Below, piece by piece: positions 1-22,982 of a stretch of DNA of 64,000 bases. Location of the stretch: contig MLAK01000904.1 in NCBI GenBank assembly GCA_001839685.1, positions 44,389 to 108,388 of the forward strand. The letters are read 5' to 3'. The translations under genes were made by a program, and so were the position numbers. Under the pieces are notes generated by a model. The model had not been told where the DNA came from, searched no databases, and saw only the letters and a list, made by a program, of their open reading frames with translations. The stretch is from Tritrichomonas foetus. Its lineage: Eukaryota; Parabasalia; Tritrichomonadida; Tritrichomonadidae. Each line of letters starts with the position of its first letter. Positions within the stretch are counted from its first letter, which is position 1.

Positions 1-3000
1 TCTTTCTTATCATCATCGTTGATGTTGTTATTATCATTATCTGTTAATGGAATATCTCTGGTTTCAAATTCTACTTCTTCTTCATTTTGAGAGGATGATT
101 TTTCTTCTTTCTTTGATCTGGTCATAAGATATGGCTCATCTTTAGAATCAGATGATGGCGGTGAGTAAGATTTGGCTGCTTCGTCACAAGGATCATTGGC
201 ATTTTCTATTATTTCTTTGGATACTTCCTTATTTTTATCTAATATATCAGCTTGTGGTGGCTCAAAAATGTTTGATTTGTTATTTGGTTCGAAATTAGAA
301 GATGACGAGGATGAAGAAGATGAAATTTTGGATTTTGATGTTTGTTTTGTTTGTGAAGGTGATGACTCAAATTCACACTGTGTCTGTTCAGTTGGAATAG
401 TGCTTCGAAGAGTTTCAATCAAAGAATGAAGTTGCTGGCGATCTTGATCAGACTCTGCTTGTTGTTTTTTCAGTAATTTCATTTCATGCTTAAGGTTATG
501 AAGAACTGATTGATAATCATCCTTCATAGTTTCAGGTAATTCATCATCGGTTTCATTCAGAGAAATATTTCGTGTTGAAATTTCGTCATTTGAATCCTGA
601 TTATCACTGCTTGATTGGTTCCTTATTTCGCTAGATTCAGTCAACTTATTTGACATAACAATTGTTTCATGGAGCTTGGGGATTAAATTCCCGTCATTCC
701 CTGGGTCAGAATTGATGTTGCTAATTTGTTTCTTCATAATTTTGATTTCATGCTTCAGACAATTAATCGCTGGAATGTAATCCTCGCTTAGATTGGAATG
801 TTCTTCTTGTTTAAGGCCTTTCAATATTTCGCGAACTTTGCTCAAAAACATCCTCTGAGCATTAGCATTTTCGATAATCTTGTTCTGAGATAGAGTTAAT
901 TCATTAATATGCTTTTTATTTTCATTGACCATTTCCATGAGATTCTCATAAAGTGTATCATTTAATTGTGAAACTTCAGGATTTGATTGAATTTCACTAA
1001 GTTGTGAAGGGAGTTCAGCTGATTGTTGGTTTGAAGAATTGTTTTCTTGGAGTGAAATGCTCTGCAATGCTTCAATGATCGTGTGAAGATTATCAAGTTC
1101 ATTTTTCATGTTTTGCATTCGATTTTCAAAATCTGGTGGTGTAATTAAGAATTTTTCTGATGTTGACTCTTTTTGTTCAATTTTACTTTCCATTTCTATT
1201 TGCTTCAATTTCATTAATTTAAGTTCATGTTTAAGGCAATCAATTGAGGACTTATCCACAGATTCACCTGATTCATTTGCAATAATATTGGTGTCATGTA
1301 TTTTATTGAGATGATTTTCAATAATTTCGGTAATTGAAGCCTGTCCAAATCGATCTTGCTTAAGCTCATTACGAACAGCATCAAGATAGCTTCTTTGAGT
1401 ATTAACACTATCAACAGCCTTGGTTTGTGAAGATGACAGTTCATTGATTAAATCATTGAATTTATTCACTTCGGATATTAATAAAATATGAGATTTTTGT
1501 AATTGTGTCAATTCTTTTTCTATTCTTGCGAAATGAGAATTATCATTGTGGTTATCATCTGATTTATTAGGTGTGACACCTTCAATAGAATTGTTTAAAT
1601 TCACAGATCTTTCAATGACTGGAATGGAATTTTCCTTCTCTTTAAAAACAAGATCTGGGATCTTATTTTGGATTTCTTCAATTTGGTGTAATTGTTCGTG
1701 TTGTTGATCCTTTAATTTATTGATTTCTTCTTCTAGTGTATTTATAGATGAATTGTCGATATCTTTTAGAACGAATTCATTAGCATCGGATTGCTCTTCT
1801 TTGGCAGGTGATTGTTTGAGTTCATTACGAAATGCGTCTAAATAGCTTCTTTGGGCATTGACAGTATCAACTGTTTTATTTTGAGCAGATGAAAGTTCTT
1901 CAATTCGATCTTTCCACTTATTCACTTCAGAAATCAATAATATATGAGATTTTTGTAATTGAGTCAATTCTTTTTCGACTTGTGCAATATGTGAATCTTC
2001 ATCAATAGGGATTGGCTTCTTTGATTCATTATTGATTCCTTCTTTATTTGGAATTAATTCATTTATGTAATCCTTTATCTTTTCAAATAAAGTATCATAA
2101 TTTTGATATTCAGATGTGATGGGAGCATGCATATTACTCGAATATTCTTGATTTTTAAGGTCATTCACTTGATCAGATAAGTTTAAGAGAAGATCCTTCA
2201 ATTCAGTCAAGTAAGATTTTTGTGCATTGAGATTATTGATAGAAATAACTTGTGAAGCTGCAACTTCTTCAAGTCGTTTCTCAAATGAGCAATCTTCATT
2301 TCCATCATTATTTGATGATTGGCTTCGTTTAGATGGTGATTTATGGCCAGTAGTATTATTGCCATGATTATTTCGATCATTGGTTCCCTTCGAAAGATTT
2401 TCATTGGTGTTATTATAATTCTTAGTTCCTTTGTTATGAACATTATTCTTATTCTTTTCATGACGATGATCGTTACCATTATCATTATCATCATCGTCAG
2501 ATGAGCTTGAAGAACTTATTTTAGAAGATGTAATAATATACTTGGTATTTCTCTTTAATAACTTAATTTCATGCTTCAAGCATCTTAACGAACTTTCGAC
2601 CTTGTGAGAAACGTCATGGTCTTTCTTCAATGATGCAAATTCTTTAGATAGCTTAGTCAAGCCATCTTTCAACTCCTTTGCAAATCCACTATCTTGTTTA
2701 AGTTGATTCTTGATCTGTGCAACTTTCTTGATCTCTTGCTGAGCATCAATAATATGTTGATCAAATCCAGCAGCAATTTTTTCAAGTCTATCGCAATATG
2801 CGACCAATTCTTCTTCGCTGGGTTGGGAGTTACTTTTTTGGTCAATGAGCAGAGGTTTCACCTTCTGTTTTGGTAAATATTTCACTTTATTTTGAAGATC
2901 AGCGATCGATGATTTGATATTTGATAATTCGTTCTCTATAACCATTGAGTCGAATTCAGGGATTTTAGTTGAAGATGCGATATTAGAATCACCCTTCATA

Positions 3001-6000
3001 ATACTGCTGACAGCCTTTAATTTCTCTTCAATTTCATCATCATGCTGCTTGGTATGTTTCTTATGACTGGTTAAATCTTGAATAGTTTTATCCTGAGATG
3101 CTTCTAACTCATTTATTCTTTCCTTTTGCTTGTTAATCTTTTTAAGTAATTGATTGTATTTATCATTTGGATCACTGAGTTTCTTTAATGATGGTTTAGT
3201 TGATGCAACTTCTTGGTCGTGATCCTTGTTCTTAGACATACTCTTATCATTAGTTCTACCTTTCACTTTAGTATTTTTAATGGCATTAGCTTGGTCAATA
3301 GTGCTATTCATCAACTCATGAATGTTGCTGATTTCTGATTCAATTTGCTGTTTCCAATCATCGTCAAGGCTCGAATTGTTAAGAGTTAATTGTGCATCTC
3401 TTTGTTCAGTGCTTTGATCATTATTTTGTCGTTGAAGAAGTGGGAGTTTGTGTTTTATGTCCAATACCAATTCAACCAATTTCTCTAAGGTCATAGAATC
3501 TTGTTCAACGGATGGATTCTCGATAATACATTTAAGAGTGTCTTGTAATTCTTTTAGATTACTCTTTGCTTTGTTCATTGATGGTTTAATTTGGGAACTT
3601 GTTGTTTCATCAGCATCAAGATCCGGATCTTTCATTTGATCAACAAATTCATCAATGTCAGATTTAAGTGTTTCGAATAATGGATTAATTGCTTTGGCTT
3701 TCTTCGAGATTGGAATTTGGAGTGACAATAAATCTGGTTGGTTATTAAAGTTATTTGTTAGTTTGTCAAGCTTATCTTCAATGATTTTAACTTTATCAGA
3801 TACGTTCGAAATATCAGAAGAGTTAATAGATGTTTTATGATTGACTTTATCGATATTATCGTGTATTTTCTTCAATTTGTCATCTGTAACTTCTTGAGCC
3901 TTTCCAAGATTGGATAAATCTTTGTGTAATTCATTCACTTGATTGCCAAGTTTTGAAGAATTGTTCTTCAATGTTTCAATCTCTTGGTCATGGTCATTTA
4001 ATTTGTTGAAATGGGATTCGGCCTTAGTTTTGAGATCTTCAATAATCGAATGGATTTCATCATTATCGTCTTTGAGATCGTTCAAAGATTTGTCAATTTT
4101 ATCAACATGATTAGTTAAATCATTAAGTTTGTGTGAAAGATTGTTATGATTTTCGTTGATTTGGTCAATATTTTGATTAATTTTCTCAATTTCGTTTGCA
4201 GCTTTCTTGATTGCTTCATTTTGATTCTTCAACTTCGATTTCAAAGTGTCGAATGTGCTATCACATTTGGATTCTAATTCATTGATTGAATTACTTGTCT
4301 TTGTCACTATATTATCAACTTCATTGATTTCGTCATTCAATTTTCCAACTTTGTCATTAAGTTCCTGATTAAGATCTGATTTGAATTTGGTGAGATCATC
4401 CTTCAATTTATTCTGATCTTTGTATAATTCCTTTATATCTGAATTATTGTCATCAATGGATGTACTCAATGAATCAATCTTATATCCAAGTTTACCGATA
4501 GAAGAATCAATATCTTCTTTGGCTTTTTGTTGTATTTTTTCGAGATCTTTGATTAAGTCGCTTTGTTTATTGAGATCCTTCCTTTCTTTTTCTTGAGAAT
4601 TCTTTAGGTCATCGATGTTGTCTTTGACTTCTTTAATAACATTATTAAGTTTCTCAATTTCTCCTGCTAATTCATCAATTCTCATTTGATTTTCATCAAG
4701 CATGATACTACGTTCTTGGATTGAATTTTGTTTGAGGCTGCAGAGCTCATGTTTAAGGCAACGGATGACTGAATTGGTTCTATCTAATGTTGCTTGATGA
4801 CTAGCTTCAATTTCATTTTGTTTTTGAATATATTCATTAAGTGTAAATGGTAATTCATTAGAAATTTCTACTTCTTCTTCTTGATCAAGTAATCTTTGAA
4901 GTGCTTCTTGTAATATCATTAATTCTCTTTCTGCCTTAGAAATTCCTGTCTTAAGTTGATCTTTACTCTTCTCTTGTCCTTCTTCAAGCATTGGATCGCG
5001 TAATTGTGTCATCATGTTATCAATTTGACGCTTCAATGATTCAATTGCTGGATTAATAGGCTTCTTCCTTGGTGACATTGAAGTATTTGGTGAGAGTGAT
5101 CTGTATTTATCTTGATCATTTGATAATTGATCAATATGATTTTCTAATTCGATAATCTTATTATTCAGTTTTCGACTATTTTGATCTATGTCTTGAACTT
5201 GTTTTTCAAGGTTGCTGCATAACTTATTCAATTCATTCAGGAATGTACGTTGTGCATTTGTAGATGTTAAAACTTTTTCTTGTGCTCCAGAAAGAGCTTC
5301 GGTTCGTTCAATAAGCATTTCAATCTTTTCGTCAATATTTTCATTTTCATCAAGAGTGATATTTCTTTCGGTGACATTATCGCTCTTTAATTTCTTAATT
5401 TCATGCTTCATGCATCTGAGAACTGGTTCAATTTGTTGTTGGATGACATTGTATTCAATAAGATTTTGTTTAAATTGAAGTTCTTTAACCATATCTAATA
5501 ATTGGTCATAGGTTATACCTTCTTCTTCAGCTAGTGCTTGCTCAGTTAAAGCTTTAAGAGTATCTTGGAGCATTCTAAGCTCTGTTTCTGCTTTTGCGAG
5601 ACTTGGCTTAAGTTTAGAATTGGTGGTATCATCATTATCGTTCAGATTTGGATCATTCATTTGTTGAACAAGTTCATCAATTTGTTCTCGAAGCAGTTCG
5701 ATTGCTGGATTAACCTGTTTCTTTCTTGGTGATCTTATTGTACTGACATACCCTGGTGAATCAAGTTTATTTTCAAGATCGTCCAATCTTGACAAAATGT
5801 CTGCAATACTTTCATTTTCAATTTTCGAAACCCTTCGATCAATATCATTGAAATTATTCATCATTTCTCTGATGCAATTCCTCATGCTATTGAATCCTTG
5901 AACAACCTTAATTTGAGACTCTGCAAGCTCGTCTGTCCTTTCGTAATTAGGTGAAGATCTTGATTGGATTTGCTTCATTTGATCAACTTCATGTTTGAGC

Positions 6001-9000
6001 TCTTCCAATGAATCCGAGAATCCTTTAATTTTCATTATTTCTGGTGAGTTTTGAGCGAATCCTTGAATCTTATTAAACATTTCGATAAGTTCGTTTGGTG
6101 GAATAATATTGTCATTATTGCCATCATTCATCATCTTAAGTACATCTTGTAATTGGCGCAATCCTGTTTCTGTTTGCTTGAATACAGGATTAAGATAGGT
6201 ATTTTCTTCGTTATTGACATCAGGATCATTCATCTTTTCAAGAAAGCTATCAATTTGTTGGTGTAACATATCAAAGTTTGGATTTTTAGTTGGTCCTACA
6301 ATTTTATTTGTTTTAGTTTCATTAATAAATTGTTTCAAAATGGTGATATCTGGAATTACTTCTTGTGTAATTAAATTCTTCATCTCCTTAAGGAAGTTCT
6401 TTTGTGCGTTTATTGAATTAACTATCATGTTATGAGCAGATACAATTTCATCAGTACGAGTAATGCATAAGTCAACTTTATTATCATTCGTTGCTTTTTC
6501 ATCTCTGGTGAAATCTTTATTTGATTTCATATCCTTCTTAAGCTGCTTGATATCACCTTTCAAGGATTCAATATCAGCAATGATATTTTCATTGGGTGGA
6601 TTAATGAATTTGCTAGGAAGAAGTCCATGAATTGCGAGAAGATTTGGACTTTCATCAGAATTGATAATTTGGTCAAGTGTATCTTGAAGAAGTTGAAGCT
6701 CTTTCTTGGCTTGTTCAATTCGAGGATTCAATGTGCCATTCTTATCCTCTTCTTGAACAGTTGGATTATTTAACATCTTAATTAAAGAGTCGATTTGTTT
6801 TTGAATTTCTTCAACTATAGGATTGTTAAGTTTTTCCTTTGGTTTTCCAAATAGGCTATTTAATGTATCTTCAAGTTCTTGGATCTTCTCGTCATGTTCA
6901 TCAATCTTACTTTGGAATGCTTCATTTGGATACTTCTGATTCTTATCTGACATTAAATATGAACGAAGTGAATTAACAACAGAAACCATCTTATTATTTA
7001 ATCCGGTTAATTCATCAGTTCTTACTTCAATGGAATCAACTTTTTCGATGACTTCTTTAAGCTTAGGTATTTCATTGCCAGACTCAGTCGGTAATTCATC
7101 AACTCTATTTTCGAGATTAGTTAATCTTTCATTGATAGTCTTAAATATATTTGGAATGTCCTCTGGTGAAAATGGTTCATCTTCATCATTGTTGGAATCA
7201 AGAATATGCTGAAGTGCTTCTTGAAGTGCAGAAAGATCAGATTGTGCTTTAGCTAAGCTTGGATTTAATTCACCGGTTGTGTCTTGGCTTAAAAGTGATG
7301 GATTATTCATTTCTTCAATTAGATTAGCTATTTGCTGGCGTAATGCAATTACAGCTGGATCTTTTTCTTTATTATTGTTCTTATTTGGGAAACTAAAGAA
7401 ATTGTTTGGAATTGGATTTTCCATCATTAAAATTTTGTCATCTTCTAATTCTTTAATCTTATTACGTAAAGCATTGATGATAGCTCTTTGGTTGTTGAAT
7501 GCGTTCACAAGTTGGATCTGTGAAGCGGTTATTTCATCAGTACGATCTTTGATTACTCTGAATTGATCATTGAGGCCATGCAAATCATCTTCATTAAAAT
7601 CATCTTCACTTAAAACGATATCGCGCGATTGAATTTCTGGAGAATGGTTCTTGAGGTTGCGAACTTCATATTTAATGCATCTCAATGCATTGAATATGTC
7701 TTTATTAGTGTCATCCTGTTGTTGGCTGTTCGCGATTTCTAATAAAGCAACTTTATCTTGTAAATTATGAATCATGTCATATAATTCATCGGATGAAGCA
7801 ATTTCGGGTTGATAATGATTATTTTCAAGAAGTGATTGAAGTGCCTCTTGAAGTGATTGGAGCCCATCTTGAGCTTTATTGATACTTGGGCTTAATTCAC
7901 CAGTATTATCTGCTTCCAGTATCGAAGGGTTATTCATTTGATCTTGAAGTGTACTAATTTGTTCACGTAATAAGAGTGCATTGATATTTGGTTCATTTGC
8001 CTTCTTGACTGGTGAATTCCAATTGGACGGAGCAGCAGATTGTTGAATCATTGTTGGGTATACATCTTCAATGTAATTGATTTTGTCGTTGACTTCTCGA
8101 AGATAATTGCGTTGAACATTATATCCAGAGATAAGTTTGGATGTAGCACAAGTCAATTCTTCAATTCTGTTGTTCATTTGATCAATCCTTTCATATATGG
8201 TTTTTGAATTAATTTCACCATCAGGATCATTCAAAGCAATGTTGCATGACCTTTCTTGAATGGTTGGTATTTCACTCTCAGAATTATCTGATGATTTATT
8301 GAATTTTATTTCTTCCAACTGAAGAGCTAAATCATCTATCTTTTCAGCAAGTCTCGGAATGAATTGTAAGCGTGGGATTTGAGTGTTCAGCATATGGATG
8401 ACCTGTGATTGAGATCCACTGATTTCATTAATTCTGTTTTGAATGGTGTTAGAGAATTCGTCATCCATTATTGAAGATTTCTTTCTATCACTTGGAAGTT
8501 GGCTAATAACTTCATTTTGTTTGTTGATTGTGCGTTCAAGAAGTCTCAGTTTTGTTTGTATTTCATTCAAGAGGTCGTAAATGGCATCTGGTGTCAAAGT
8601 ATAAGGATCAACGTCAGGTTGTTCCATCAAACTGTTTAATGTCTCTTGTAATCTCACTAAATCAGTTTGGGCTTGATTCATTGATGGCTTAAGTTGGTTA
8701 ATTGTATCAGGCTCTTCTCTAAGTCCTGGGTTTTCCATTTCATTAAGTAATTGCTCAACACGATCTTTAAGAGTTTGAACATGAGGACTTAGCCCCTTCT
8801 TCTTAACTGGAGAGCCAGAAAGGAATGACTCTGTCAAAGCTCTTGAGTTTTCTTTCTGAGCTTCAGAAAGTTTATAAACTTGTGCTTTAAGTTCATCAAT
8901 TTCCTTAATTAAATGCTCTTGCTTTTGAGCATCCTCAAGTGATTCCTTCAATTTAGAAAGCTCTCCTTCGATTTCATGAATTGCTTGAGAATCGTCAATA

Positions 9001-12000
9001 TTAAGCTCGGAAATAGCTTGTTCGAGGGCTGCTATCCGTTGAAGCTCGGAATCGATACGTAAGCTATTGTCATGGATCTTTGAAGTTTGAGCATTAATTG
9101 TATGTAGTGCCTGGATATGACTAGATCCAATATTATTTATTCTTGCAGTAAGTTTTTCAATATTTTGAGAAATTTCTTCGATGTATTTATCTTGTTGTTT
9201 AGATTCTTGTTCTCGTTCAACTTTTGTATTAAGATGATGAATCAAATCATTTTCAATAATGGATAATCTTTGGTGAAGATCTTTAATCATTTCGTAAAAA
9301 TCGAGTTCGGCTGCAGAGTTTTGTTGATCGAGGATGCTTTGAAGTTGGTTTCGTAGAATGACTAAATCTTTATTGGCTCTGTCGAGATTAGGTTGTAATT
9401 CGTTAGATTCGTCATCCTCAATCTTTGATTCATTAATTTCCTCAACTAAAAGATCGATTTGATTTCGGAGATTTTCGACATATGGATTGCTCTTCTTTGG
9501 TGATGAAACAACTGGTTTTTGGCGTTTAATAAAGTCGATTTCCTTCTCAATATCGTCGATTTTCTCTAGAATCTTGTTCATTGCTTTGATGTAATGATGA
9601 GAAGAAGTATCATCTTGTGTCGTCTTTTCAAGATTAGCAATACGAGCTAATCCTTCATTCAATTTGGAAGAATATTCACGAATGTTAGTTGATTGAGCTT
9701 TAACAATTTGGTTAATTTTGTTTTGTGAACTGCTGATTTCGTTAATTCGTTGTACAATTCCCAAAATATTGTCTGAAATTCCACTACCTAAAGCAGATTT
9801 ATCGGTCGAAACATGATCTGTGTCAACGATAGGTGGACAACCTTTCTCAGATTTTCTATTTTGTATGTTCTTAATCTTTTTGATTTCGCGCTTAATGTTC
9901 TCAATTGCTTTCTCTTGACCTTTAACTAAATCCTTAAGAGTTTCGTTACCTTTAGGTGATGAGGAAGGCTTTCGTTTCTTTTCATCATTTGTTGTTTCTT
10001 CTTCAGATTCAAGATTTAGTCCTATGCCTCTTGTTTGAATAGTTTCTGGTTCCTCTTCAAGTGCCTTTATGCGTGTTTGCATATCGCAAATATTCCTCCA
10101 AATAATTTCTGGTGTGAGGAACTCAACTTCAATTTCTTCTTGGGAAAGAATATTTTCTAATGTTTCTCTTAAAAGCTCAAGTTCGGATTTCATCTGAGTC
10201 ATTGATGGTTTAAGATGATCGATGTCATCATCTGGAGCTTCATTAGCATTATTCATTTCTTCTACAAGAGAATTGATTTTATTGCGAAGAACTTCAACAA
10301 TTGGATTAGTATACTTCTTCCTGGGAGATGTAGATATAACTGGCCAGCTCATATCACCAGATTGTGGTGTATGTGGTTGAGAACGGATAGATTTGGTGGA
10401 TTTTGGTGTTTGGAATTGGGATTCATGTTGATCGACTGCTTGAATTGGTTCTTCCTTTGAATGCATCATGGAAATTGTTTGTTCAAGGGCTTTAAAGGCA
10501 TCGTCTTGTTCAGTAATTCTTTGATTGAGGTCGGCTAAACTATCTTTCATTTCATTGCGGAATTCTCTTAAATAAGTCCTTTGAGCATTCACAACTTTAA
10601 TGGTTTGATTTTGCATTCCACAAAGTTCTTCAAGTCGATCATTGAATGGTAAGAAATTGTTTTGAAGTTCTTTAATATGTTCAACTTCTGTTTCAAGCTC
10701 GTCAATTCGTGTTTGCGATTCAAGATCAATTCCTCGTTCAACAACTTCAATTTCATCGTCAATTTCATTTGTATTGGATGATTTAGGATAACGTTTGGAA
10801 TTCTTCAATTTCTTCACTTCATATTTCAAGCAACGAATTGTCCTGCTCATAAATTCACTAGTCGTGTTTCGTTGTTGTTCTGTGTTTTGTTCAAGCAAAA
10901 TTAACCGTTGTTGAATAGCTCGAACTTTGGATGAAAGATCTTCAAGTGAAATGATATCTGATTCTGATTCTTCAGAAACAAGTTGATTTAATGTATCTTT
11001 CAAGACTTGTAACTGTTCTTCTGTTTGTTGAATTTGTGGCTTAATTCGACCTTCTTCATCAACTTCATCAATATTTTGATTTCCTAATTCCTTAGAAAAC
11101 TCTTCAATCTTGTTCTTTAATAATTCAATTGTTGGATTTTCTTCTTTGGGCTTCTTAAAGGAATATGATTGAATTTGGGAATTTTCTAATCTTTCTTCAA
11201 TTGTGTTAAGTCTTGGATCGACGTCGTTCGTTAATAAGTCTTTCATTTTTGAAATACACGATCTTTGAGCATTAAGATTCTTAACCATTAACATGTTGGC
11301 TGAAGACAACTCTTCAATTCTATATTTCATAGAATTAATTTCATTTGAATCATTGAAAGTATTGGTAACTTCATCTGCACTTGATCTATAAATGCATCCT
11401 GAATTTTCAAGAACTGAAAGTCTTTGATGGATTTCTGCCATTTTCTGGTAAATATTTTGTGGAGTAATTTCAATTTCACGTGTCTGTTTCTTCGGTAATA
11501 GAGTACTGGCGATATCTTTAAGTTTATGAATTTCACTTTGTGTCTGGTTAATTTGTGGTAATAATTTACCTGTTTCATCAGTTTCATGTATATTAGGATC
11601 TGAAAGTCTGTTATCAAGATCTTCGATTTTCTTATTCAAATCTTCAATGAGTGGATTGGGTTTGGATTCTGTTGTTTCTGTCATAATCCATCTCTTTTCA
11701 TTTTCTGAAAGAATTTCAACTTTTCTTTCCAAAAGTGCCATTCTTTCTTCAATATCAGATGGAACTAAAGTATAGGTGTAATTAGGTGAAGCTTGAGATT
11801 TCGATGGCTCAGAGTTGTTGGGGTTATCAGAACGATTGGAATCTTGCTTCAGGATTTTAACCTCGTGTTTAAGGCAGTTAACTGTCTTTTCAAGGCTATT
11901 TAATGTTGATTGAATGTTATTATCATTTGTGTTTTGAATTAATATCAGCTTAGTTTCAATTTCACGGAGTTTGTTGATGATATCTGTTGGAGATTGGATT

Positions 12001-15000
12001 TGATCAAGATTTTCATCTTCATTTTCGATTTCAGTCATTAATTTCTGTAATTGCTCGAGTTCTTTAGTGACTTGTTCGGACTGTTGCTTTATTTTACCAT
12101 TTTCGTCAGATTTTTCGAATTCTTCATCATTAAGTTTCTTCATCAATTCTTCGATGTTTTGCTTTATTGGTTCAAGAAGTGGATTATGTGTTTTATCTTT
12201 CTTTGGATCAGAGAAGTCAAACCAGTTTCCAGAATTAATGTTTTGAATTTGTTCATTTAGGATTTCAACTTTATGTTCAAGTTGAGAAATCTTATTTTCT
12301 ACGTCATTTGAAGTGTTATTCTTTAAAAGCTGAAGCATGCTTCTTTGAGCATTCACAACTTTAATGGTTTGATTTTGCATTCCACAAAGTTCTTCAAGTC
12401 GATCATTGAATGGTAAGAAATTGTTTTGAAGTTCTTTAATATGTTCAACTTCTGTTTCAAGCTCGTCAATTCGTGTTTGCGATTCAAGATCAATTCCTCG
12501 TTCAACAACTTCAATTTCATCGTCAATTTCATTTGTATTGGATGATTTAGGATAACGTTTGGAATTCTTCAATTTCTTCACTTCATATTTCAAGCAACGA
12601 ATTGTCCTGCTCATAAATTCACTAGTCGTGTTTCGTTGTTGTTCTGTGTTTTGTTCAAGCAAAATTAACCGTTGTTGAATAGCTCGAACTTTGGATGAAA
12701 GATCTTCAAGTGAAATGATATCTGATTCTGATTCTTCAGAAACAAGTTGATTTAATGTATCTTTCAAGACTTGTAACTGTTCTTCTGTTTGTTGAATTTG
12801 TGGCTTAATTCGACCTTCTTCATCAACTTCATCAATATTTTGATTTCCTAATTCCTTAGAAAACTCTTCAATCTTGTTCTTTAATAATTCAATTGTTGGA
12901 TTTTCTTCTTTGGGCTTCTTAATAGAAGTTATGTATCCATTTTCGGACAATTTATCGATTTTCTCTTCAAATTCCTTTCTTAAATTATTGAAACGATTTT
13001 CAAGATCATTCTCAATATTATCACTTATCTTCCTAATTAATGCTCTATGATTGTTTACATTATTAGTCAAAACCATATTACTTGACGCTATTTCATCAAC
13101 TCTTGTCATTAATACTGATAATTGCTCCGTGTTTGCTTCAAAATTGCGTTCTTCAGATGGTTCTGCGTATCTAACTGGTGCATAAGTATTTGGAACTGTA
13201 TTTTTCTTCAATTTATTAAGCTCATACTTAATGCAATGAAGAGTAGAATGAATTGTATTTACATCAACTGTATTATGTGCATTTTCTAATAATGTATTGA
13301 TAGATTCATTGAGTTTTTGAGATTCATATTCAAGTGTTACTACTTTAGTTTTCAGGAGCTTGACAATTCTAAATAGAGTTTCTGGAGTAATAGTCTCTGC
13401 AGTCTCTTCTTCTTCGTCTAGATTGTATTCAATTGAATTTAATGCATCCTTTAAGATTTGAAGATCTTCTTGAGCCTTGGCAATTTTCGGAGAAATCATT
13501 TCGATATCAGTTGAAGCAATTTCTGGCTTGTTTAATTGGTCAACGAGTTGATCAATCTTCTCCTTAATTTCATCGACTGTTTGATCAGATTCTGGTGGTT
13601 TGCTTATGGATTTGGATGATTTTCTGTCGTAGAAAGAATTTCCTTCAAGATTTGATTTTATGTTTTCAAGTTCTTTCTCAATTAAACCAACTCTTTCTTC
13701 TATTTCGTCATTGGCAAGTTCTTTGATCTTTCTAAGATATGATCTTTGCGTATTTACGTTCTTGATAATACTCATTTGTGATCCTGTTAATTCATCAACT
13801 CGTTTAGCTAGATCTTGAATATTTTCATTTGGTTCTAAATTCATCTTTGTTTGTTTATCTCTTAACAATTTGATTTCATGTTTAAGGCATCGTAATGTTT
13901 GAGGAAATGCGGTAAGGTCCTCAAATTTAACTGGAACTGTTTGATTCTTGAGTTCATTAATATTATCAATGATATTGTCGCGAATTTGATAAATTTCACT
14001 GTAAATTTCGCCAATTATTTGATCCATTAATGAGATAAGTGATGATGAGATTAATCCATTATCTTCAAATTCTTGTTCAGCCTTTATTGTTTCTTTAAGA
14101 TTCATTAAGCCTTGAGAAGCCTTTTCGATTGATGGTTGTAATGATTCAGATTTATGATTCTTGAGTTCATTAATCATTTGTTCGATTTTATCTTCAAGTG
14201 AGGTTTCTTTTTCCGCACTTTCCTCTTTGTCGGTGTAAGCTTCTTGGCTATTACCTTTATTGTCATCATTGTCTCTTTCGACAACTTTAGTTTTTCGTGA
14301 ATTTGCCTGTTGTGATTCAATTTGTGACTCTAATTTATTGATTTTGTCCCAAATGTCATCAAACTTGTTATTAATGTCATCATCAATATCCAAATTGATG
14401 TCTCTTTGAATGATATTATGATAATTTGGAACATTGTCTTCGACTGTTTCAGGCTTAGCTGTAATATGCTTATCAAGCATCGAGTGAATGAAAGATTTTT
14501 GAGCATTTACGTTTTTGATTGTTTGAACCTGTGAACTTGTTAAAGTTTCAACCCTTTCTTCAAGTAATTTAATTTTATCAAGCAATGATTGATGCTTTGG
14601 CTCTTGAGATGATACGCTTGGAGGATCACATTGATTTTTCATTTTGTTGGCTTCGTATTTAAGGCATTTCAGGTCTCTTTCGGCTTTGAAGCATGCTTGT
14701 GATGAGTCGATTTTAGAATCATCATCAGATTCCATTGTTGGAATTGAGTTCTTAATTAAATTGATTGATTGATCGAGCGAATCAACCAGCTCACGAACGT
14801 TTGATGGTTGATTGGCCGAATTCAACTCTTTAAGATTGTTTAATTCATCTTTTATATTTCGCATTGAATTCTTGAGGATATTAATAGAATCAATAATAGA
14901 TTCACCATTTGTATCAACAGCTTCTGAAGATTCTGCCTTTAATTTTCTTAATTCATGTTTAATGCATTTAATTGAATTTACAAGATTATTGATAGATTCA

Positions 15001-16154
15001 GTGACGATTGGATTTTCAGTTGGAACTTCAATTGATGCAGTTTTTCCAATTAATTCTGTTAATTGGTTCTTTATTCCATCAATATCCATTTCGGTTTCAC
15101 TAAGTCTGTCTGCAAGATCTTCAGTTGTTTTTGTAATTGAAGCAAGTTTGTCGAATGTCTTTTGAGAGATTGATCTTAAATTGGCAGTTTGTTTATTTGA
15201 ATTTAAGATTAATTTATTTTGAGAATTGCTAATCTCTTCAATTCTTGTCTTCAAATATGAAAATTGCTTCATGGTTTCTTCATTGTCAGATGACTTGTCT
15301 TTGGATAGACCTTCATCTTTAAGTTGTTTTAATTCATATTTAATACATTGAAGGTTTCGATCAAATTCACCAAATTTGTTATCTTGTTCGTTTAATTGTT
15401 CCTTTAATTTATCTATTTCCGAAAATGTCTGCGTTTGAGCTTCAACAAGTTTTGGAATATCTTTTAGATTATCTTTATATTTGTTCATTTTTTCTTGGTA
15501 GATTTCAAAATCATCAATTGTTGCTGTGCCTTTGTGAATGACATCAATAACTGTTCTAATGGCTTCTAACTCAACTTGCATTTCTCTGATTGTTGAATCA
15601 TCACTTTTTCCTGTTGCTTGGAACTTGCAAAATTCGACTTCATCCTGAAAAGCATTAATGTTAGCTTGAGCTTTTGCGATGGATTCAAGATTATTAGTAT
15701 GATAACTGGATACTTTATTTACGGTTTCCTGAAGCTGAGAAATTCGCTCATTTGACTCGTTTTGATATTGAATGAAAGCTGACTTCAATTTCTTAATTTT
15801 CTGGACAGTATATGGATCAGATTGAATTTGTGGGGCTTTGTATGGAGAATTAGTTGCCGACGATTTCAATGCACGTAATTGAACTTTGATCGATTCGATT
15901 TCATCTTGCTGCTGAGAGATCGACTTCTCAAAATTCACAACTGGCGCACGATTTTTCAATGTGTTCGTTGAAATAAATTGATTAAACTCGTTGGAAATTC
16001 GTATTATTTCTTGATTGAAGGTTTTATTTTCCGTTTTATATTGTTGGAGAGCTTGCAAAATTTGTTTCACGAAAGATTGCTGCTCCTCAACAATATTTGC
16101 GATTTCGCTGATGTGGGATCCAATGGAAATATCAAGAGGCCTTGGAGAATCCAT
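1..16154 (-). CDS. Giant modular coiled-coil repeat protein, at least 5,384 aa, C-terminus beyond window
   Basis: The frame opens at an ATG at 16154 and stays open to the left edge. I confirmed the phase by checking about 15 CLKHEIK-like motifs spread from 486 to 15336, all in the same frame. The product is rich in E, K, L, I, N, Q and S, with heptad patterning. About 15 modules recur. A module begins with SP-x-KK-x-NPxIExL, continues with a helix ending in MNDP-like residues and an acidic linker, then LxPSxxxAxxxLxxLQ and a RLxxLE helix. It ends with C(L/I)K(H/Y)E(I/V)K and a final RxDELSSxQ...VNAQRS helix. Roughly 3.8-5.0 kb is plain coiled coil without modules. Acidic, Ser/Asn-rich linkers lie near 2290-2520 and 1-400. 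No membrane segment or enzyme motif is visible. A structural cytoskeletal role, such as a striated fibre, is inference. I do not recognise the family. Confidence 0.88.
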   Translation of the reverse strand, partial: MDSPRPLDISIGSHISEIANIVEEQQSFVKQILQALQQYKTENKTFNQEIIRISNEFNQFISTNTLKNRAPVVNFEKSISQQQDEIESIKVQLRALKSSATNSPYKAPQIQSDPYTVQKIKKLKSAFIQYQNESNERISQLQETVNKVSSYHTNNLESIAKAQANINAFQDEVEFCKFQATGKSDDSTIREMQVELEAIRTVIDVIHKGTATIDDFEIYQEKMNKYKDNLKDIPKLVEAQTQTFSEIDKLKEQLNEQDNKFGEFDRNLQCIKYELKQLKDEGLSKDKSSDNEETMKQFSYLKTRIEEISNSQNKLILNSNKQTANLRSISQKTFDKLASITKTTEDLADRLSETEMDIDGIKNQLTELIGKTASIEVPTENPIVTESINNLVNSIKCIKHELRKLKAESSEAVDTNGESIIDSINILKNSMRNIKDELNNLKELNSANQPSNVRELVDSLDQSINLIKNSIPTMESDDDSKIDSSQACFKAERDLKCLKYEANKMKNQCDPPSVSSQEPKHQSLLDKIKLLEERVETLTSSQVQTIKNVNAQKSFIHSMLDKHITAKPETVEDNVPNYHNIIQRDINLDIDDDINNKFDDIWDKINKLESQIESQQANSRKTKVVERDNDDNKGNSQEAYTDKEESAEKETSLEDKIEQMINELKNHKSESLQPSIEKASQGLMNLKETIKAEQEFEDNGLISSSLISLMDQIIGEIYSEIYQIRDNIIDNINELKNQTVPVKFEDLTAFPQTLRCLKHEIKLLRDKQTKMNLEPNENIQDLAKRVDELTGSQMSIIKNVNTQRSYLRKIKELANDEIEERVGLIEKELENIKSNLEGNSFYDRKSSKSISKPPESDQTVDEIKEKIDQLVDQLNKPEIASTDIEMISPKIAKAQEDLQILKDALNSIEYNLDEEEETAETITPETLFRIVKLLKTKVVTLEYESQKLNESINTLLENAHNTVDVNTIHSTLHCIKYELNKLKKNTVPNTYAPVRYAEPSEERNFEANTEQLSVLMTRVDEIASSNMVLTNNVNNHRALIRKISDNIENDLENRFNNLRKEFEEKIDKLSENGYITSIKKPKEENPTIELLKNKIEEFSKELGNQNIDEVDEEGRIKPQIQQTEEQLQVLKDTLNQLVSEESESDIISLEDLSSKVRAIQQRLILLEQNTEQQRNTTSEFMSRTIRCLKYEVKKLKNSKRYPKSSNTNEIDDEIEVVERGIDLESQTRIDELETEVEHIKELQNNFLPFNDRLEELCGMQNQTIKVVNAQRSMLQLLKNNTSNDVENKISQLEHKVEILNEQIQNINSGNWFDFSDPKKDKTHNPLLEPIKQNIEELMKKLNDEEFEKSDENGKIKQQSEQVTKELEQLQKLMTEIENEDENLDQIQSPTDIINKLREIETKLILIQNTNDNNIQSTLNSLEKTVNCLKHEVKILKQDSNRSDNPNNSEPSKSQASPNYTYTLVPSDIEERMALLERKVEILSENEKRWIMTETTESKPNPLIEDLNKKIEDLDNRLSDPNIHETDETGKLLPQINQTQSEIHKLKDIASTLLPKKQTREIEITPQNIYQKMAEIHQRLSVLENSGCIYRSSADEVTNTFNDSNEINSMKYRIEELSSANMLMVKNLNAQRSCISKMKDLLTNDVDPRLNTIEERLENSQIQSYSFKKPKEENPTIELLKNKIEEFSKELGNQNIDEVDEEGRIKPQIQQTEEQLQVLKDTLNQLVSEESESDIISLEDLSSKVRAIQQRLILLEQNTEQQRNTTSEFMSRTIRCLKYEVKKLKNSKRYPKSSNTNEIDDEIEVVERGIDLESQTRIDELETEVEHIKELQNNFLPFNDRLEELCGMQNQTIKVVNAQRTYLREFRNEMKDSLADLNQRITEQDDAFKALEQTISMMHSKEEPIQAVDQHESQFQTPKSTKSIRSQPHTPQSGDMSWPVISTSPRKKYTNPIVEVLRNKINSLVEEMNNANEAPDDDIDHLKPSMTQMKSELELLRETLENILSQEEIEVEFLTPEIIWRNICDMQTRIKALEEEPETIQTRGIGLNLESEEETTNDEKKRKPSSSPKGNETLKDLVKGQEKAIENIKREIKKIKNIQNRKSEKGCPPIVDTDHVSTDKSALGSGISDNILGIVQRINEISSSQNKINQIVKAQSTNIREYSSKLNEGLARIANLEKTTQDDTSSHHYIKAMNKILEKIDDIEKEIDFIKRQKPVVSSPKKSNPYVENLRNQIDLLVEEINESKIEDDESNELQPNLDRANKDLVILRNQLQSILDQQNSAAELDFYEMIKDLHQRLSIIENDLIHHLNTKVEREQESKQQDKYIEEISQNIEKLTARINNIGSSHIQALHTINAQTSKIHDNSLRIDSELQRIAALEQAISELNIDDSQAIHEIEGELSKLKESLEDAQKQEHLIKEIDELKAQVYKLSEAQKENSRALTESFLSGSPVKKKGLSPHVQTLKDRVEQLLNEMENPGLREEPDTINQLKPSMNQAQTDLVRLQETLNSLMEQPDVDPYTLTPDAIYDLLNEIQTKLRLLERTINKQNEVISQLPSDRKKSSIMDDEFSNTIQNRINEISGSQSQVIHMLNTQIPRLQFIPRLAEKIDDLALQLEEIKFNKSSDNSESEIPTIQERSCNIALNDPDGEINSKTIYERIDQMNNRIEELTCATSKLISGYNVQRNYLREVNDKINYIEDVYPTMIQQSAAPSNWNSPVKKANEPNINALLLREQISTLQDQMNNPSILEADNTGELSPSINKAQDGLQSLQEALQSLLENNHYQPEIASSDELYDMIHNLQDKVALLEIANSQQQDDTNKDIFNALRCIKYEVRNLKNHSPEIQSRDIVLSEDDFNEDDLHGLNDQFRVIKDRTDEITASQIQLVNAFNNQRAIINALRNKIKELEDDKILMMENPIPNNFFSFPNKNNNKEKDPAVIALRQQIANLIEEMNNPSLLSQDTTGELNPSLAKAQSDLSALQEALQHILDSNNDEDEPFSPEDIPNIFKTINERLTNLENRVDELPTESGNEIPKLKEVIEKVDSIEVRTDELTGLNNKMVSVVNSLRSYLMSDKNQKYPNEAFQSKIDEHDEKIQELEDTLNSLFGKPKEKLNNPIVEEIQKQIDSLIKMLNNPTVQEEDKNGTLNPRIEQAKKELQLLQDTLDQIINSDESPNLLAIHGLLPSKFINPPNENIIADIESLKGDIKQLKKDMKSNKDFTRDEKATNDNKVDLCITRTDEIVSAHNMIVNSINAQKNFLKEMKNLITQEVIPDITILKQFINETKTNKIVGPTKNPNFDMLHQQIDSFLEKMNDPDVNNEENTYLNPVFKQTETGLRQLQDVLKMMNDGNNDNIIPPNELIEMFNKIQGFAQNSPEIMKIKGFSDSLEELKHEVDQMKQIQSRSSPNYERTDELAESQIKVVQGFNSMRNCIREMMNNFNDIDRRVSKIENESIADILSRLDDLENKLDSPGYVSTIRSPRKKQVNPAIELLREQIDELVQQMNDPNLNDNDDTTNSKLKPSLAKAETELRMLQDTLKALTEQALAEEEGITYDQLLDMVKELQFKQNLIEYNVIQQQIEPVLRCMKHEIKKLKSDNVTERNITLDENENIDEKIEMLIERTEALSGAQEKVLTSTNAQRTFLNELNKLCSNLEKQVQDIDQNSRKLNNKIIELENHIDQLSNDQDKYRSLSPNTSMSPRKKPINPAIESLKRQIDNMMTQLRDPMLEEGQEKSKDQLKTGISKAERELMILQEALQRLLDQEEEVEISNELPFTLNEYIQKQNEIEASHQATLDRTNSVIRCLKHELCSLKQNSIQERSIMLDENQMRIDELAGEIEKLNNVIKEVKDNIDDLKNSQEKERKDLNKQSDLIKDLEKIQQKAKEDIDSSIGKLGYKIDSLSTSIDDNNSDIKELYKDQNKLKDDLTKFKSDLNQELNDKVGKLNDEINEVDNIVTKTSNSINELESKCDSTFDTLKSKLKNQNEAIKKAANEIEKINQNIDQINENHNNLSHKLNDLTNHVDKIDKSLNDLKDDNDEIHSIIEDLKTKAESHFNKLNDHDQEIETLKNNSSKLGNQVNELHKDLSNLGKAQEVTDDKLKKIHDNIDKVNHKTSINSSDISNVSDKVKIIEDKLDKLTNNFNNQPDLLSLQIPISKKAKAINPLFETLKSDIDEFVDQMKDPDLDADETTSSQIKPSMNKAKSNLKELQDTLKCIIENPSVEQDSMTLEKLVELVLDIKHKLPLLQRQNNDQSTEQRDAQLTLNNSSLDDDWKQQIESEISNIHELMNSTIDQANAIKNTKVKGRTNDKSMSKNKDHDQEVASTKPSLKKLSDPNDKYNQLLKKINKQKERINELEASQDKTIQDLTSHKKHTKQHDDEIEEKLKAVSSIMKGDSNIASSTKIPEFDSMVIENELSNIKSSIADLQNKVKYLPKQKVKPLLIDQKSNSQPSEEELVAYCDRLEKIAAGFDQHIIDAQQEIKKVAQIKNQLKQDSGFAKELKDGLTKLSKEFASLKKDHDVSHKVESSLRCLKHEIKLLKRNTKYIITSSKISSSSSSDDDDNDNGNDHRHEKNKNNVHNKGTKNYNNTNENLSKGTNDRNNHGNNTTGHKSPSKRSQSSNNDGNEDCSFEKRLEEVAASQVISINNLNAQKSYLTELKDLLLNLSDQVNDLKNQEYSSNMHAPITSEYQNYDTLFEKIKDYINELIPNKEGINNESKKPIPIDEDSHIAQVEKELTQLQKSHILLISEVNKWKDRIEELSSAQNKTVDTVNAQRSYLDAFRNELKQSPAKEEQSDANEFVLKDIDNSSINTLEEEINKLKDQQHEQLHQIEEIQNKIPDLVFKEKENSIPVIERSVNLNNSIEGVTPNKSDDNHNDNSHFARIEKELTQLQKSHILLISEVNKFNDLINELSSSQTKAVDSVNTQRSYLDAVRNELKQDRFGQASITEIIENHLNKIHDTNIIANESGESVDKSSIDCLKHELKLMKLKQIEMESKIEQKESTSEKFLITPPDFENRMQNMKNELDNLHTIIEALQSISLQENNSSNQQSAELPSQLSEIQSNPEVSQLNDTLYENLMEMVNENKKHINELTLSQNKIIENANAQRMFLSKVREILKGLKQEEHSNLSEDYIPAINCLKHEIKIMKKQISNINSDPGNDGNLIPKLHETIVMSNKLTESSEIRNQSSSDNQDSNDEISTRNISLNETDDELPETMKDDYQSVLHNLKHEMKLLKKQQAESDQDRQQLHSLIETLRSTIPTEQTQCEFESSPSQTKQTSKSKISSSSSSSSSNFEPNNKSNIFEPPQADILDKNKEVSKEIIENANDPCDEAAKSYSPPSSDSKDEPYLMTRSKKEEKSSSQNEEEVEFETRDIPLTDNDNNNINDDDKK
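1375..1995. repeat. Diverged 456-bp-offset duplication near the C-terminal side of the giant gene
   Basis: Segments near 1375-1540 and 1830-1995 are close copies offset by 456 bp (152 codons). Each encodes a helix with the pattern LTQLQKSHILLISEVNK followed by a (D/N)xI(E/N)ELSS-type helix and a VNxQRSYLDAxRNELKQ end. They differ by scattered substitutions, unlike the perfect 580-bp repeat, so they are an older duplication. Confidence 0.75.
10579..11158. repeat. Perfect 580-bp direct repeat, copy A, within the giant gene
   Basis: This block matches 12343-12922 base for base when the two are compared line by line. The offset is 1,764 bp, exactly 588 codons, so the frame is kept. It encodes about residues 1666-1859 of the giant protein and spans a module head, the CLKYEVK motif and the VNAQR tail. 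Similarity stops abruptly at both edges. Confidence 0.95.
12343..12922. repeat. Perfect 580-bp direct repeat, copy B, within the giant gene
   Basis: Second copy of the block at 10579-11158, encoding about residues 1078-1271. The other modules share only motifs with each other, so perfect identity here implies a very recent duplication, gene conversion or an assembly error. Confidence 0.95.
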
Positions 16155-22800: not shown

Positions 22801-22982
22801 TTCATGAATTTTACGATAAAATAAATAAAGAAGGTTTTCAACTCGCCAATCAATTCATTGAATTTTCTGAAGAAGTAGAAGATGAAATTTTAGAAATCGC
22901 TGACCTTAAATCTGCTTTTGTATACGCTGAAATTAATACTGATGAAGATTTGATTTCTTGGGTTAAAGGGGCTATTCAATAA
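16875..22982 (+). CDS. UBR4/BIG-like E3 ubiquitin ligase (2,035 aa)
   Basis: Large cytosolic E3-type protein. The C-terminal UBR4 domain is recognisable from about residue 1705: WECCICKEGY starts a hemi-RING, followed by HPSCH, a REWDAA helix and an N-C-x-PFP-like stretch, ordered as in animal UBR4 and plant BIG. Around residues 603-655 sit zinc-ribbon pairs (CPIC, CSKC, CREC, CCEC with a NINYNHLDAF core) typical of UBR4. They follow a beta-sandwich region near 510-600 and a CTVC pair at 476. The rest is helical-repeat scaffold with an acidic linker near 1130-1180. It is much shorter than the roughly 5,000-residue animal and plant members. I see no Cys/His-rich UBR box in the first 450 residues, so recognition of N-degrons by the classical route is doubtful. 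The ATG at 16875 is the first in frame. Confidence 0.85.
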   Translation: MEKFLDLQLDKNSKIPTIEVLLKSVGDSPNAAFYRIANSLHYNNNLNPIYTLVSLRDIIRISPINTKSEVEDEILKPTNSYRWLFLIHSLASKAITNDQELEKAKATYVLQAYYNFINNCSIDKKYTFSLLSGVFCVTARLIDSCQFVPDFFTTEEFYQKLLYYLTLTDFPACQIDIHDFSVQDLFSFCSPISLEYLPPSDLFSSPKLFLSASIIRLLNRILPKSLPTKLDDYKRIIQPFCVHGIIVEPARRVLIHLFNGDENEAYKFSDTLQYQECITILSEKAAKTKNFKYPLNYIESIKLSENLSHIRSVATEHPNHWISFLNSNQGTTDYLLALLQSDYDSDFVIAAATILRMGEAKFTNTKIALNLLIFSRSTILREEISKLLLLQPESISDQILECFPLVCNYGSRSDVFFSFLTELIPKLSNPTKILKALINSIYEESEQIKKLPNSHIYNQLSQYIDVPASYLDPQPCTVCNNPERQPTKKDLNELKDYYKYTHDQIYVKLKQPQIIQTFSLTFSIKKRSRLPRTVHIYVSGSEINTQNELVGDKLNWYHAADLNFPKDTTTCSVELPLRLFATCLKFTFAEFWEDPSSVMTLTCPICRSEITDIRSGLCSKCRENAYQCRECRNINYNHLDAFICCECGFSNFVNFTWTVTSLPSFSHTHIQSESDCDASLKKCDELLAEAHTSYESLTKLQNEIDNVLSPACSLGLNSRTSKLNNLYNTECKSKFQSLTTIVQHVCVIRTAIATYKKRSTHSFSSTSINMCYNCRSTYIKNCLKFFNSVTKYTKDESLDIPKMLFSFANENSIFTSTAIDSLVSFCSEEWELTLNVVDKFTKSLPNVQPQLVRLLCELENVNDIQRSNRLTVFLSAVIESVKFMDYNSSFTPLVLQPLFNAVANSPLIIRSKDIYLKHKAYNSWATKQIKLFDPFDVIISQDFCLTLFTECSSASVRNTIASLYKDASTLSSEHFKKISSIIVSKIEQNNKFNQYDMQLYQVLAFLLQNNEFLVHTLQTNFFDHIIDLLCQEVDNVLASEENVALNLSVGLQSSILMDVVKIYLAPVSHLRYVINRKTELIVRVFTSYFKLRSLLIQRSKYLDNSLMMMKDIIMRTMLKEFDLCSSNQNEKDQIQNLQDSQISDQEEDYFSDDDHEEFTPNTTATLTPATSNEQMSQEDTVKVQNTAGPQILLRSAIKAIEFCPDIVIREIASVIFPPKQVMDVPVIIQKQPSQEDYIPGRLSKQTIYSKQIGETFRDIKMKICNDLSMQHLIEDDHGMELLVNRNIIGLSLSISEVYQRIWVPAHGRKPMMIYCRLQGLDGEATEPMIESFPSEETDDEPPEIKFAYTQVLCENSGFEKFLMPLDDYESISDVALRDLVKLLDTFVLVKRNRVELNRLNSIDKLFDLMTYIISNEGPAELLSQAISITSSLIDDDKSVLHGQDEKVKFIFDSLEKSLLRNNTDTLLSPFLSLIPPLAEASRQLTMTVLSKFLAKLRPETQEGKNTEEKATEEKGLDEKIADESFNFFENSSSLYMLNGFAEFTLALPSNDGEIRDLILREKVVQDAVSYLERIFPISESRTSQKWKSSLEIQCLPMLLKLLAGMVLNHKPTQEFFIASDAKLIKLLLELEAVSSSANIGEFASQVLHNACTEPSICSSVVDGIKKEHANAAKQRAIEEKEKALKLAQLQLSPEYLKMMGELDDQSWECCICKEGYESEPKEQLGVYVYCNQIGDIVNTATYFVCVHPSCHSRDKNTVEQRGRLREWDAAMVRNCERPCNSIFPLPYSSISTNQYKQALIRYIEDNKPRNSQDNFKMFFNDVKKHLDIISKCEKIPLTSGGGSQSSIFELLPFLIYAGHLFLDGDPRKAQESKMQQYIDNPNTSPIDSIVLSLWILNLEEWDFVKLSILKSLLKSAIPKLDEVKDDEIFDKIKNSLILYIIINKIHSMIKVPSGNEPVTNENGKILVKDHKEEKWLHEFYDKINKEGFQLANQFIEFSEEVEDEILEIADLKSAFVYAEINTDEDLISWVKGAIQ

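What the first reader, a model, noticed from the sequence alone, without database searches (positions are those of the whole stretch)
1..16154. Uninterrupted reading frame of more than 5,384 codons for a modular coiled-coil giant
A single minus-strand frame fills the first quarter of the window and still has no stop. It encodes about 15 variants of one module plus a plain coiled-coil block. I know of no described family with this module order. A giant modular rod protein in a parabasalid would be a candidate component of the costa, pelta-axostyle or striated roots.
Basis: partly seen in the sequence, partly recalled or inferred. Interest (0 to 1): 0.9.

Follow-up and report, generated by a model that had tools for sequence, protein, structure and literature searches.

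The report
Giant modular coiled-coil protein family, Tritrichomonas
A parasite of cattle and cats carries genes for very long rod-like proteins built from many copies of one unnamed helical module; they form a family with a relative in a mouse-gut species and may be parts of the cell's unusual internal skeleton, which no experiment has yet tested.

Summary
A minus-strand frame runs from ATG at 16154 to the window edge: 5,384 codons, at least 618 kDa, 16 near-full copies of one ~190-column module, partial copies and a plain coiled-coil stretch. The window starts beside 20,030 N, so its end cannot be read. The organism is, by inference, Tritrichomonas foetus. A complete, N-free paralogue of 6,240 codons on another contig (TRFO_37229, 'hypothetical') is collinear with it, so the giant frame is no accident. 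A third giant (7,099 codons) shares head, tail and motifs; two ~1,700-1,900-residue proteins share only the head. Relatives exist in T. musculus (M9Y10_004797) and one unnamed source. No Pfam or NCBIfam cut-off is reached; PDB sequence matches look like generic coiled coil. The module is predicted as a helical hairpin, a spacer helix and a ~80-residue helix. No transmembrane-like segment is seen. Best reading: a Tritrichomonas family of very large scaffold rods, probably in the flagellar-root cytoskeleton; inferred, not shown. The costa is disfavoured by protein size but not excluded. Long exact internal repeats in three giants may be gene conversion or assembly artefact.

The parts
3..16154 (-). 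Giant open reading frame, 5,384 codons from ATG to window edge, at least 618 kDa, 3' end lost in an N run
15345..16154 (-). N-terminal head (residues 1-270), similar in five T. foetus proteins, P0003 and P0004; helices at 11-38, 44-64, 70-101 in a low-confidence model
13644..14201 (-). Module g1 (residues 652-837)
12945..13577 (-). Module g2 (860-1070)
12237..12902 (-). Module g3 (1085-1306)
11679..12185 (-). Module g4 (1324-1492)
11163..11657 (-). Module g5 (1500-1664)
10479..11138 (-). Module g6 (1673-1892)
9588..10307 (-). Module g7 (1950-2189); an S-P-x-K-K site precedes it
8994..9488 (-). Module g8 (2223-2387); an S-P-K-K site precedes it
8307..8786 (-). Module g9 (2457-2616); an S-P-x-K-K site precedes it
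7410..7973 (-). Module g10 (2728-2915); an S-P-x-K-K site precedes it
6861..7358 (-). Module g11 (2933-3098)
6306..6824 (-). Module g12 (3111-3283)
5775..6284 (-). Module g13 (3291-3460)
5145..5711 (-). Module g14 (3482-3670), best score to the profile (168.7 bits) but also the seed of the profile; modelled as residues 3482-3722; an S-P-x-K-K site precedes it
4479..5054 (-). Module g15 (3701-3892); an S-P-x-K-K site precedes it
3735..4442 (-). Plain coiled-coil block (about residues 3905-4140); the bin with the strongest 3.5-residue periodicity (7.1) lies here
3213..3686 (-). Module g16 (4157-4314)
2655..2813 (-). Non-modular conserved block (residues 4448-4500), also in TRFO_37229, P0003 and P0004
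792..2342 (-). Tail of partial modules, mainly the SQ..NAQR helix and C-[L/I]-K-H-E motif (about residues 4605-5121); a similar layout follows the block in P0004
12343..12922 (-). First copy of the exact 580-nt internal repeat
10579..11158 (-). Second copy of the exact 580-nt internal repeat

Best explanation
The gene encodes one member of a family, so far seen only in Tritrichomonas and one unnamed source, of very long cytoplasmic scaffold rods. An N-terminal helical head and (in the relatives whose end is known) a C-terminal tail motif flank an array of about 10-23 modules. Each module is a helical hairpin bead, a spacer helix and a long helix carrying the SQ..NAQR motif, joined to the next by a linker that is often basic and proline-containing. 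The long helices probably pair into coiled coils, so that several chains make a rod with hairpin nodes; head and tail anchor or join the ends. Array length differs between species. The likeliest place is the fibrous flagellar-root cytoskeleton (kinetosome-associated bodies, parabasal or sigmoid filaments, attachment of the recurrent flagellum, or costa), acting as a load-bearing tether or scaffold. In this gene and its closest T. foetus paralogue several linkers fit the S/T-P-x-K/R kinase consensus (recalled), so assembly may be switched by phosphorylation. Shown: frame, modules, family, linker motif, no transmembrane-like window. Predicted: helices. Inferred: oligomer, place, regulation.
For: Open frame and modules. 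Collinear full-length paralogue, 24% identity, giant 9-5358 with paralogue 4-5503, 1502 bits; the next best, module-shifted alignment scores 1180. Of 16 and 23 modules, 7 reciprocal-best pairs, 7 of 7 in the same order (1/5040 if order were random). P0003 with TRFO_37229: 9 reciprocal-best pairs, 8 in order, against 6 and 5 with the window's protein. Third giant with head and tail similarity. Head in five T. foetus proteins. Tail motif in paralogue, third giant, P0003 and P0004. Periodicity at 3.5 residues 3.17 against 1.03 shuffled. Model: helices 2-18, 34-63, 68-110, 126-206, mean pLDDT 79. S-P linker motif 7 against 0.73 expected, 0 of 300 shuffles as many, 6 of 7 within 15 residues before a module start; paralogue 6 against 0.60, 0 of 300, 5 of 6 so placed. 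No hydropathy window above 1.6 in seven proteins.
Against: No expression, peptide or localisation data were at hand. The module model has pTM 0.28, so the arrangement of its helices is unsure, and its alignment holds only this protein's own 15 module stretches. Module spacing is irregular (173-277 residues in the giant, 159-305 in the paralogue) and array length is not conserved (T. foetus 6,240 against T. musculus 3,923 residues), which speaks against a strict periodic ruler. The S-P-x-K-K sites are rare elsewhere in the family: third giant 1, P0003 2, P0004 1. Long coiled-coil rods also serve Golgi and nuclear tethers (recalled), so cytoskeletal placement is inference.
Confidence: 0.55

Rival explanations
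1. It is a structural protein of the costa itself.
For: T. foetus has a large striated costa; known costains are described as helical and likely coiled-coil, and 44 hypothetical proteins without conserved domains were reported from costa fractions (PMC13071381, section 'Costa'; the list was not seen). A Tritrichomonas family would suit the A-type costa.
Against: Costa proteins are reported as mainly 100-150 kDa, with bands down to 26 kDa; this protein is at least 618 kDa and its paralogue 710 kDa. Module spacing is irregular. A search of the T. foetus assembly with one module matched only C514 and C773 (29 matches), so no 100-150 kDa protein was seen to share it; but that search also missed the diverged copies in the third giant, and its counts are lower bounds. 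Costain sequences were not compared.
Confidence: 0.12
2. It is the Tritrichomonas counterpart of P477, the large coiled-coil protein of the Trichomonas vaginalis atractophore.
For: Coiled-coil nature, large size and a kinetosome-linked organelle (review PMC13071381; 477 kDa recalled and implied by the name). Repeated S-P-x-K linkers would suit control in mitosis.
Against: No T. vaginalis protein appeared in three protein searches, whose length limits (about 2,960-9,420 and 1,830-5,830 residues) would admit a 477-kDa protein; but they need shared 5-residue words and scored 1,124, 34 and 7,978 candidates, so this is weak.
Confidence: 0.13
3. It is a long membrane tether (golgin- or nesprin-like) rather than part of a fibre.
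For: Long rods with end anchors are typical of golgins and nesprins (recalled).
Against: No transmembrane-like window in seven family members, relatives with complete C-termini included; no CH, KASH, GRIP or spectrin domain among the Pfam families listed for the window's protein, the paralogue, 6,275 of 7,099 residues of the third giant, C853, P0003 and P0004. Not all tethers have a transmembrane segment.
Confidence: 0.15
4. The frame is real but the array is partly an assembly artefact: the exact 580-nt internal repeat, and similar ones in the two other giants, were made by a short-read assembler, so the true protein differs somewhat in length.
For: All three T. foetus giants carry one long exact internal tract (193, 114 and 115 residues) while the longest in P0003 is 18 and P0004 has none of 15 or more. 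The published T. foetus K assembly is Illumina/454 with AllPaths-LG and GapFiller (PMC5399258); that the window's genome is this assembly is inferred. An N codon lies at the start of the tract in the third giant.
Against: The tracts join flanking sequence in frame and in module register; in the giant and its paralogue they link modules that correspond by position (g3/g6 and p4/p7). This rival touches about 200 of 5,384 residues, not the giant frame itself.
Confidence: 0.4

Closest known systems
TRFO_37229, hypothetical protein, Tritrichomonas foetus (P0002, 6,051 aa annotated; 6,240-codon frame here on C773)
   Same: Same head, module and conserved block, collinear
   Different: Paralogue: 24% identity, more modules, a plain coiled-coil tail where the window's protein has NAQR units; annotated start is 189 residues inside the frame found here
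M9Y10_004797, Tritrichomonas musculus (P0003, 3,923 aa), UniRef name beginning 'Viral A-type inclusion'
   Same: Head, modules, block and tail; likely orthologue of TRFO_37229
   Different: Fewer modules (16 near-full against 23), no long exact internal tract
P0004, unnamed 3,937-aa protein from ENA
   Same: Head, modules, block, then NAQ-type units and tail, a layout like that of the window's protein; block scores 144 with the window's protein, 112 with the paralogue
   Different: Very divergent head; orthology to the window's gene not resolved by module pairs (4 with it, 5 with the paralogue) or by the head tree
Costains 1-3 of the T. foetus costa (review PMC13071381)
   Same: Described as helical, likely coiled-coil cytoskeletal proteins of the same species
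   Different: Costa proteins mainly 100-150 kDa; sequences not compared here
P477 of the T. vaginalis atractophore (review PMC13071381)
   Same: Large coiled-coil scaffold of a trichomonad
   Different: Different genus, sequence not compared
FAZ10 of Trypanosoma brucei (PMC5358337, title and start of abstract seen in a search listing)
   Same: Works-like analogue: a giant protein required to stabilise the flagellum attachment zone
   Different: No sequence comparison made; a different lineage

Membership tests
The family proposed here (Tritrichomonas modular giants) | N-terminal head of about 270 residues with a G..[IV].....[IV]..Q..[FL]I..[IL]L core | tested here: met
   From the window's head: paralogue E 3e-52, third giant E 4e-16, C853 E 2e-4. 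C381 was not found from it, only from the heads of the third giant (E 1e-7) and C853 (E 9e-19)
The family proposed here (Tritrichomonas modular giants) | Array of the ~190-column module | tested here: met
   16 near-full modules here, 23 in the paralogue; 16 in P0003, 10 in P0004; the third giant has only diverged copies, best 40.7 bits; C853 and C381 not scanned with the module profile
The family proposed here (Tritrichomonas modular giants) | C-terminal tail motif | not testable with these tools
   The window gene's end lies in or beyond the N run; motif seen in paralogue, third giant, P0003 and P0004, not in C853 or C381
Costa proteins (costains) | Mass near 100-150 kDa | tested here: not met
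   At least 618 kDa against the sizes in PMC13071381; a size range of main bands, not a strict definition
Costa proteins (costains) | Localisation to the costa | not testable with these tools
   Needs microscopy or proteomics
P477 atractophore protein | Sequence similarity | tested here: inconclusive
   No T. vaginalis hit; word-based searches, P477 sequence not at hand
Spectrin/plakin/nesprin superfamily | Spectrin repeats and CH domains by Pfam | tested here: not met
   None among families listed for the window's protein (E<=0.01), the paralogue, 6,275 of 7,099 residues of the third giant and C853 (E<=0.001), P0003 and P0004 (E<=0.01). One of four heads had a Spectrin_Anc-1 match at E 0.0064
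Spectrin/plakin/nesprin superfamily | Spectrin fold | tested here: inconclusive
Golgin/KASH-type tethers | C-terminal transmembrane segment | tested here: inconclusive
   None in the six relatives with complete C-termini; the window gene's own C-terminus is unknown
SMC/Rad50 family | Curated NCBIfam cut-off | tested here: not met
   Best SMC score 61.7 against a cut-off of 567; archaeal SMC-related ASRP 69.8 against 300

The most novel reading that the evidence does not exclude
Tritrichomonads build one of their genus-specific kinetosomal or root fibres from a lineage-restricted family of modular rods, by length roughly 0.45 to 0.8 MDa, assembled and taken apart through kinase sites in the linkers, with fibre dimensions tuned by module gain, loss and gene conversion rather than by subunit number. 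This would be a eukaryotic scaffold family unrelated to spectrins, titins or intermediate filaments. It would fit structures that T. foetus has and T. vaginalis lacks (supra- and infra-kinetosomal bodies, comb; PMC13071381, passage).
Probability: 0.2. Interest if true: 0.75.

Novelty: new variant of a known kind. Interest (0 to 1): 0.5.

Why it matters
The fibrous cytoskeleton of trichomonads is poorly known: the Costa section of the 2026 review read here names three costains and P477 (PMC13071381). A family of giants with a recognisable head, module, block and tail gives concrete candidates to tag, and profiles to find orthologues. 'Hypothetical' and 'viral A-type inclusion' labels have hidden it. 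It also shows that an unbroken frame of over 18 kb occurs in this genome.

Tried and rejected
Extending to the stop codon: blocked by the 20,030-N run; far-side frames end after 72, 48 and 3 codons in low-complexity sequence and were not assigned to the gene. A search with the paralogue's C-terminal tail matched only C773 itself and the third giant (61 of 229 candidates scored), so the missing end was not found elsewhere.

Known families: Pfam and NCBIfam matches are below their cut-offs. PDB sequence matches reach E 2e-5 for the module profile (viral fusion proteins; 60 of 87 shown), 7e-7 for the long head profile (a designed coiled coil) and 1.5e-4 for the head (a tail needle protein), which I read as generic coiled coil. 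Foldseek found no PDB match at E <= 0.001 and the structural second look only common helical arrangements. The head model was too weak (mean pLDDT 59.8) to search with.

CCGTTAAAA upstream of both genes as a shared promoter motif: 2 matches in the window against 0.52 expected, 13 of 100 shuffles as many, so dropped.

Orthology of P0004 to the window's gene from the head tree: unresolved, long branches.

Papers: nine searches on costa, giant protein, P477, TRFO identifiers, costain, viral A-type inclusion, parabasal filament, trichomonad costa and accessions. No listed paper is on this family by title or abstract start; several lists were cut (15 of 140, 25 of 1,057, 12 of 18, 12 of 260). TRFO_37229 and M9Y10_004797 occur in no paper of the library, which lacks most subscription journals. 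Seen: PMC5399258, first of two parts, which holds all its main text; PMC13071381, passages and the Costa section; PMC13332039, passages; PMC5358337, search listing only.

Full report
What is there. The first quarter of the window holds one minus-strand frame, 16154 down to 3, with an ATG start and no stop in 5,384 codons by the standard code. At this base composition such a frame by chance has a log10 probability near -188. It encodes at least 618 kDa, pI 4.9, rich in E, N, L, K, S and I, with 0.1% tryptophan. The frame is cut off because the window begins beside 20,030 N in its contig (C514:24359-44388).

The module. Iterative profiles seeded with residues 3482-3700 find 30 matches, full and partial, in the protein and none in 20 locally shuffled versions. 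With a profile from this protein and its paralogue, 16 copies are near full length. The consensus runs from an N-P start through a first helix, a loop with N-D-P and L-K-P-S, a second helix with L..LQ.TL, then R-C-L-K-H-E, an R-[DGSN]-I-x-L turn, and a long helix with SQ....NAQR..L. Sites of the C-[LIMV]-K-[HYRS]-E type number 10 against 0.00 expected, NAQR-type sites 20 against 1.96 and R-x-I-x-L sites 9 against 1.01, with 0 of 300 block shuffles as many for each. Spacing is 173-277 residues (mean 218). A model of one module plus the start of the next gives helices at 2-18, 34-63, 68-110, 126-206 and 221-238, mean pLDDT 79 but pTM 0.28. Its first 63 residues resemble common helical hairpins; Foldseek finds no PDB match at E <= 0.001. 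Hydrophobic periodicity peaks at 3.5 residues among nine periods tried (3.17 against 1.03 shuffled).

Linkers. S/T-P sites followed by basic pairs occur 7 times against 0.73 expected, and 6 in the paralogue against 0.60, with 0 of 300 shuffles reaching either; 6 of 7 and 5 of 6 lie within 15 residues before a module start. They fit a proline-directed kinase consensus (recalled). They are rare in the third giant (1), P0003 (2) and P0004 (1), so any such control is not a family-wide trait.

The family. That the organism is Tritrichomonas foetus is inferred: the only hit of the first protein search was TRFO_37229, whose contig length, 29,153, equals that of C773 in the window's own genome. There the frame is complete, 6,240 codons, with stop and no N inside, and starts 189 residues before the annotated protein. 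It aligns with the window's protein nearly end to end (9-5358 with 4-5503, 24% identity, 1502 bits); module-shifted alignments score lower (1180 and less). Of 16 modules here and 23 there, 7 pairs are reciprocal best matches and all 7 keep the same order, so the gene was probably duplicated with its array already differentiated. A third giant on C220 (7,099 codons, two of them with N) shares the head (E 4e-16), the tail (E 3e-6), NAQRSYLD units and C-I-K-H-E motifs; its module copies are diverged (best 40.7 bits). Proteins on C853 (1,880 codons) and C381 (a 1,732-codon frame) share the head; C381 was linked through the heads of C220 and C853, not through the window's. A search with a profile of four N-terminal parts then found T. 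musculus M9Y10_004797 and an unnamed 3,937-residue protein. The former pairs with TRFO_37229 (9 reciprocal-best modules, 8 in order, against 6 and 5 with the window's protein) although it is 2,317 residues shorter than the frame. The latter has a layout after the conserved block like that of the window's gene and a higher block score with it (144 against 112), but the head tree and module pairs do not settle its place. By its layout the window's gene might end some 100-300 residues beyond the window edge, a rough estimate from a weak alignment.

What it is not. No Pfam family reaches its cut-off for the window's protein, the paralogue, 6,275 of 7,099 residues of the third giant, C853, P0003 or P0004; NCBIfam matches of the window's protein are far below cut-off. 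PDB sequence matches (best E 2e-5, 7e-7 and 1.5e-4 for three profiles) are to viral fusion proteins, a designed coiled coil, a phage tail needle, tektins and the like, which I read as coiled-coil composition. No window of 19 residues reaches a mean hydropathy of 1.6 in seven proteins.

How it may work. I read it as a cytoplasmic rod with hairpin nodes, end-anchored by head and tail, in the flagellar-root cytoskeleton. The family is so far seen only in Tritrichomonas and one unnamed source, which would fit structures present in T. foetus and absent from T. vaginalis (supra- and infra-kinetosomal bodies, comb; PMC13071381); but the absence from T. vaginalis rests on three word-based searches and is weak. 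The costa is possible but disfavoured, as its reported proteins are mainly 100-150 kDa; against that, 44 hypothetical proteins from costa fractions are mentioned whose list I have not seen. P477 of the T. vaginalis atractophore is the nearest described analogue and could not be compared.

Odd point. All three T. foetus giants hold one long exact internal repeat: 193, 114 and 115 residues; at DNA level 580 nt here and 339 nt in the paralogue, not measured in the third. The paralogue also has shorter exact repeats (up to 34 residues) in its coiled-coil tail, and P0003 has two of 17-18. In the giant and its paralogue the long repeat links modules that correspond by position (g3/g6, p4/p7), their cross scores being near ties (137/132 and 127/126), as intragenic gene conversion would leave them. 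But the published T. foetus K assembly is from short reads with automated gap filling (PMC5399258; 1,573 scaffolds and 68.5 Mb there, 1,064 contigs and 63.7 Mb here, so identity with it is inferred), an N codon sits at the start of the repeat in the third giant, and P0003 and P0004 have no exact repeat of 20 residues or more. Both readings stay open.

Verdict.

Noticed in passing
window 12343-12922 and 10579-11158; C773 and C220 counterparts: Each of three T. foetus giants carries one long exact internal repeat; in two of them it links modules that correspond by position. Gene conversion or short-read assembly artefact.
   Followed up: partly
C514:24359-44388 and C773:1-9118: Long N runs lie beside both module giants; a contig beginning with N suggests withheld or masked stretches rather than gaps.
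   Followed up: no
C220:51175-72471 (L028-L030): Third giant frame of 7,099 codons with serine-rich acidic spacers, next to a frame at C220:72939-74096 whose start reads like actin (by eye, no search).
   Followed up: partly
window 16875-22982 (+): Divergently transcribed neighbour is a 2,035-aa UBR4-type E3 ubiquitin ligase (Pfam E3_UbLigase_R4, E 3e-113).
   Followed up: no
window 42047-43819 (-): 590-aa protein with a long array of short N-, M- and P-containing repeats such as NNINPM, no Pfam match.
   Followed up: no
TRFO_37229 (P0002): The annotated start lies 189 residues inside the open frame; the left-out stretch holds most of the conserved head.
   Followed up: yes
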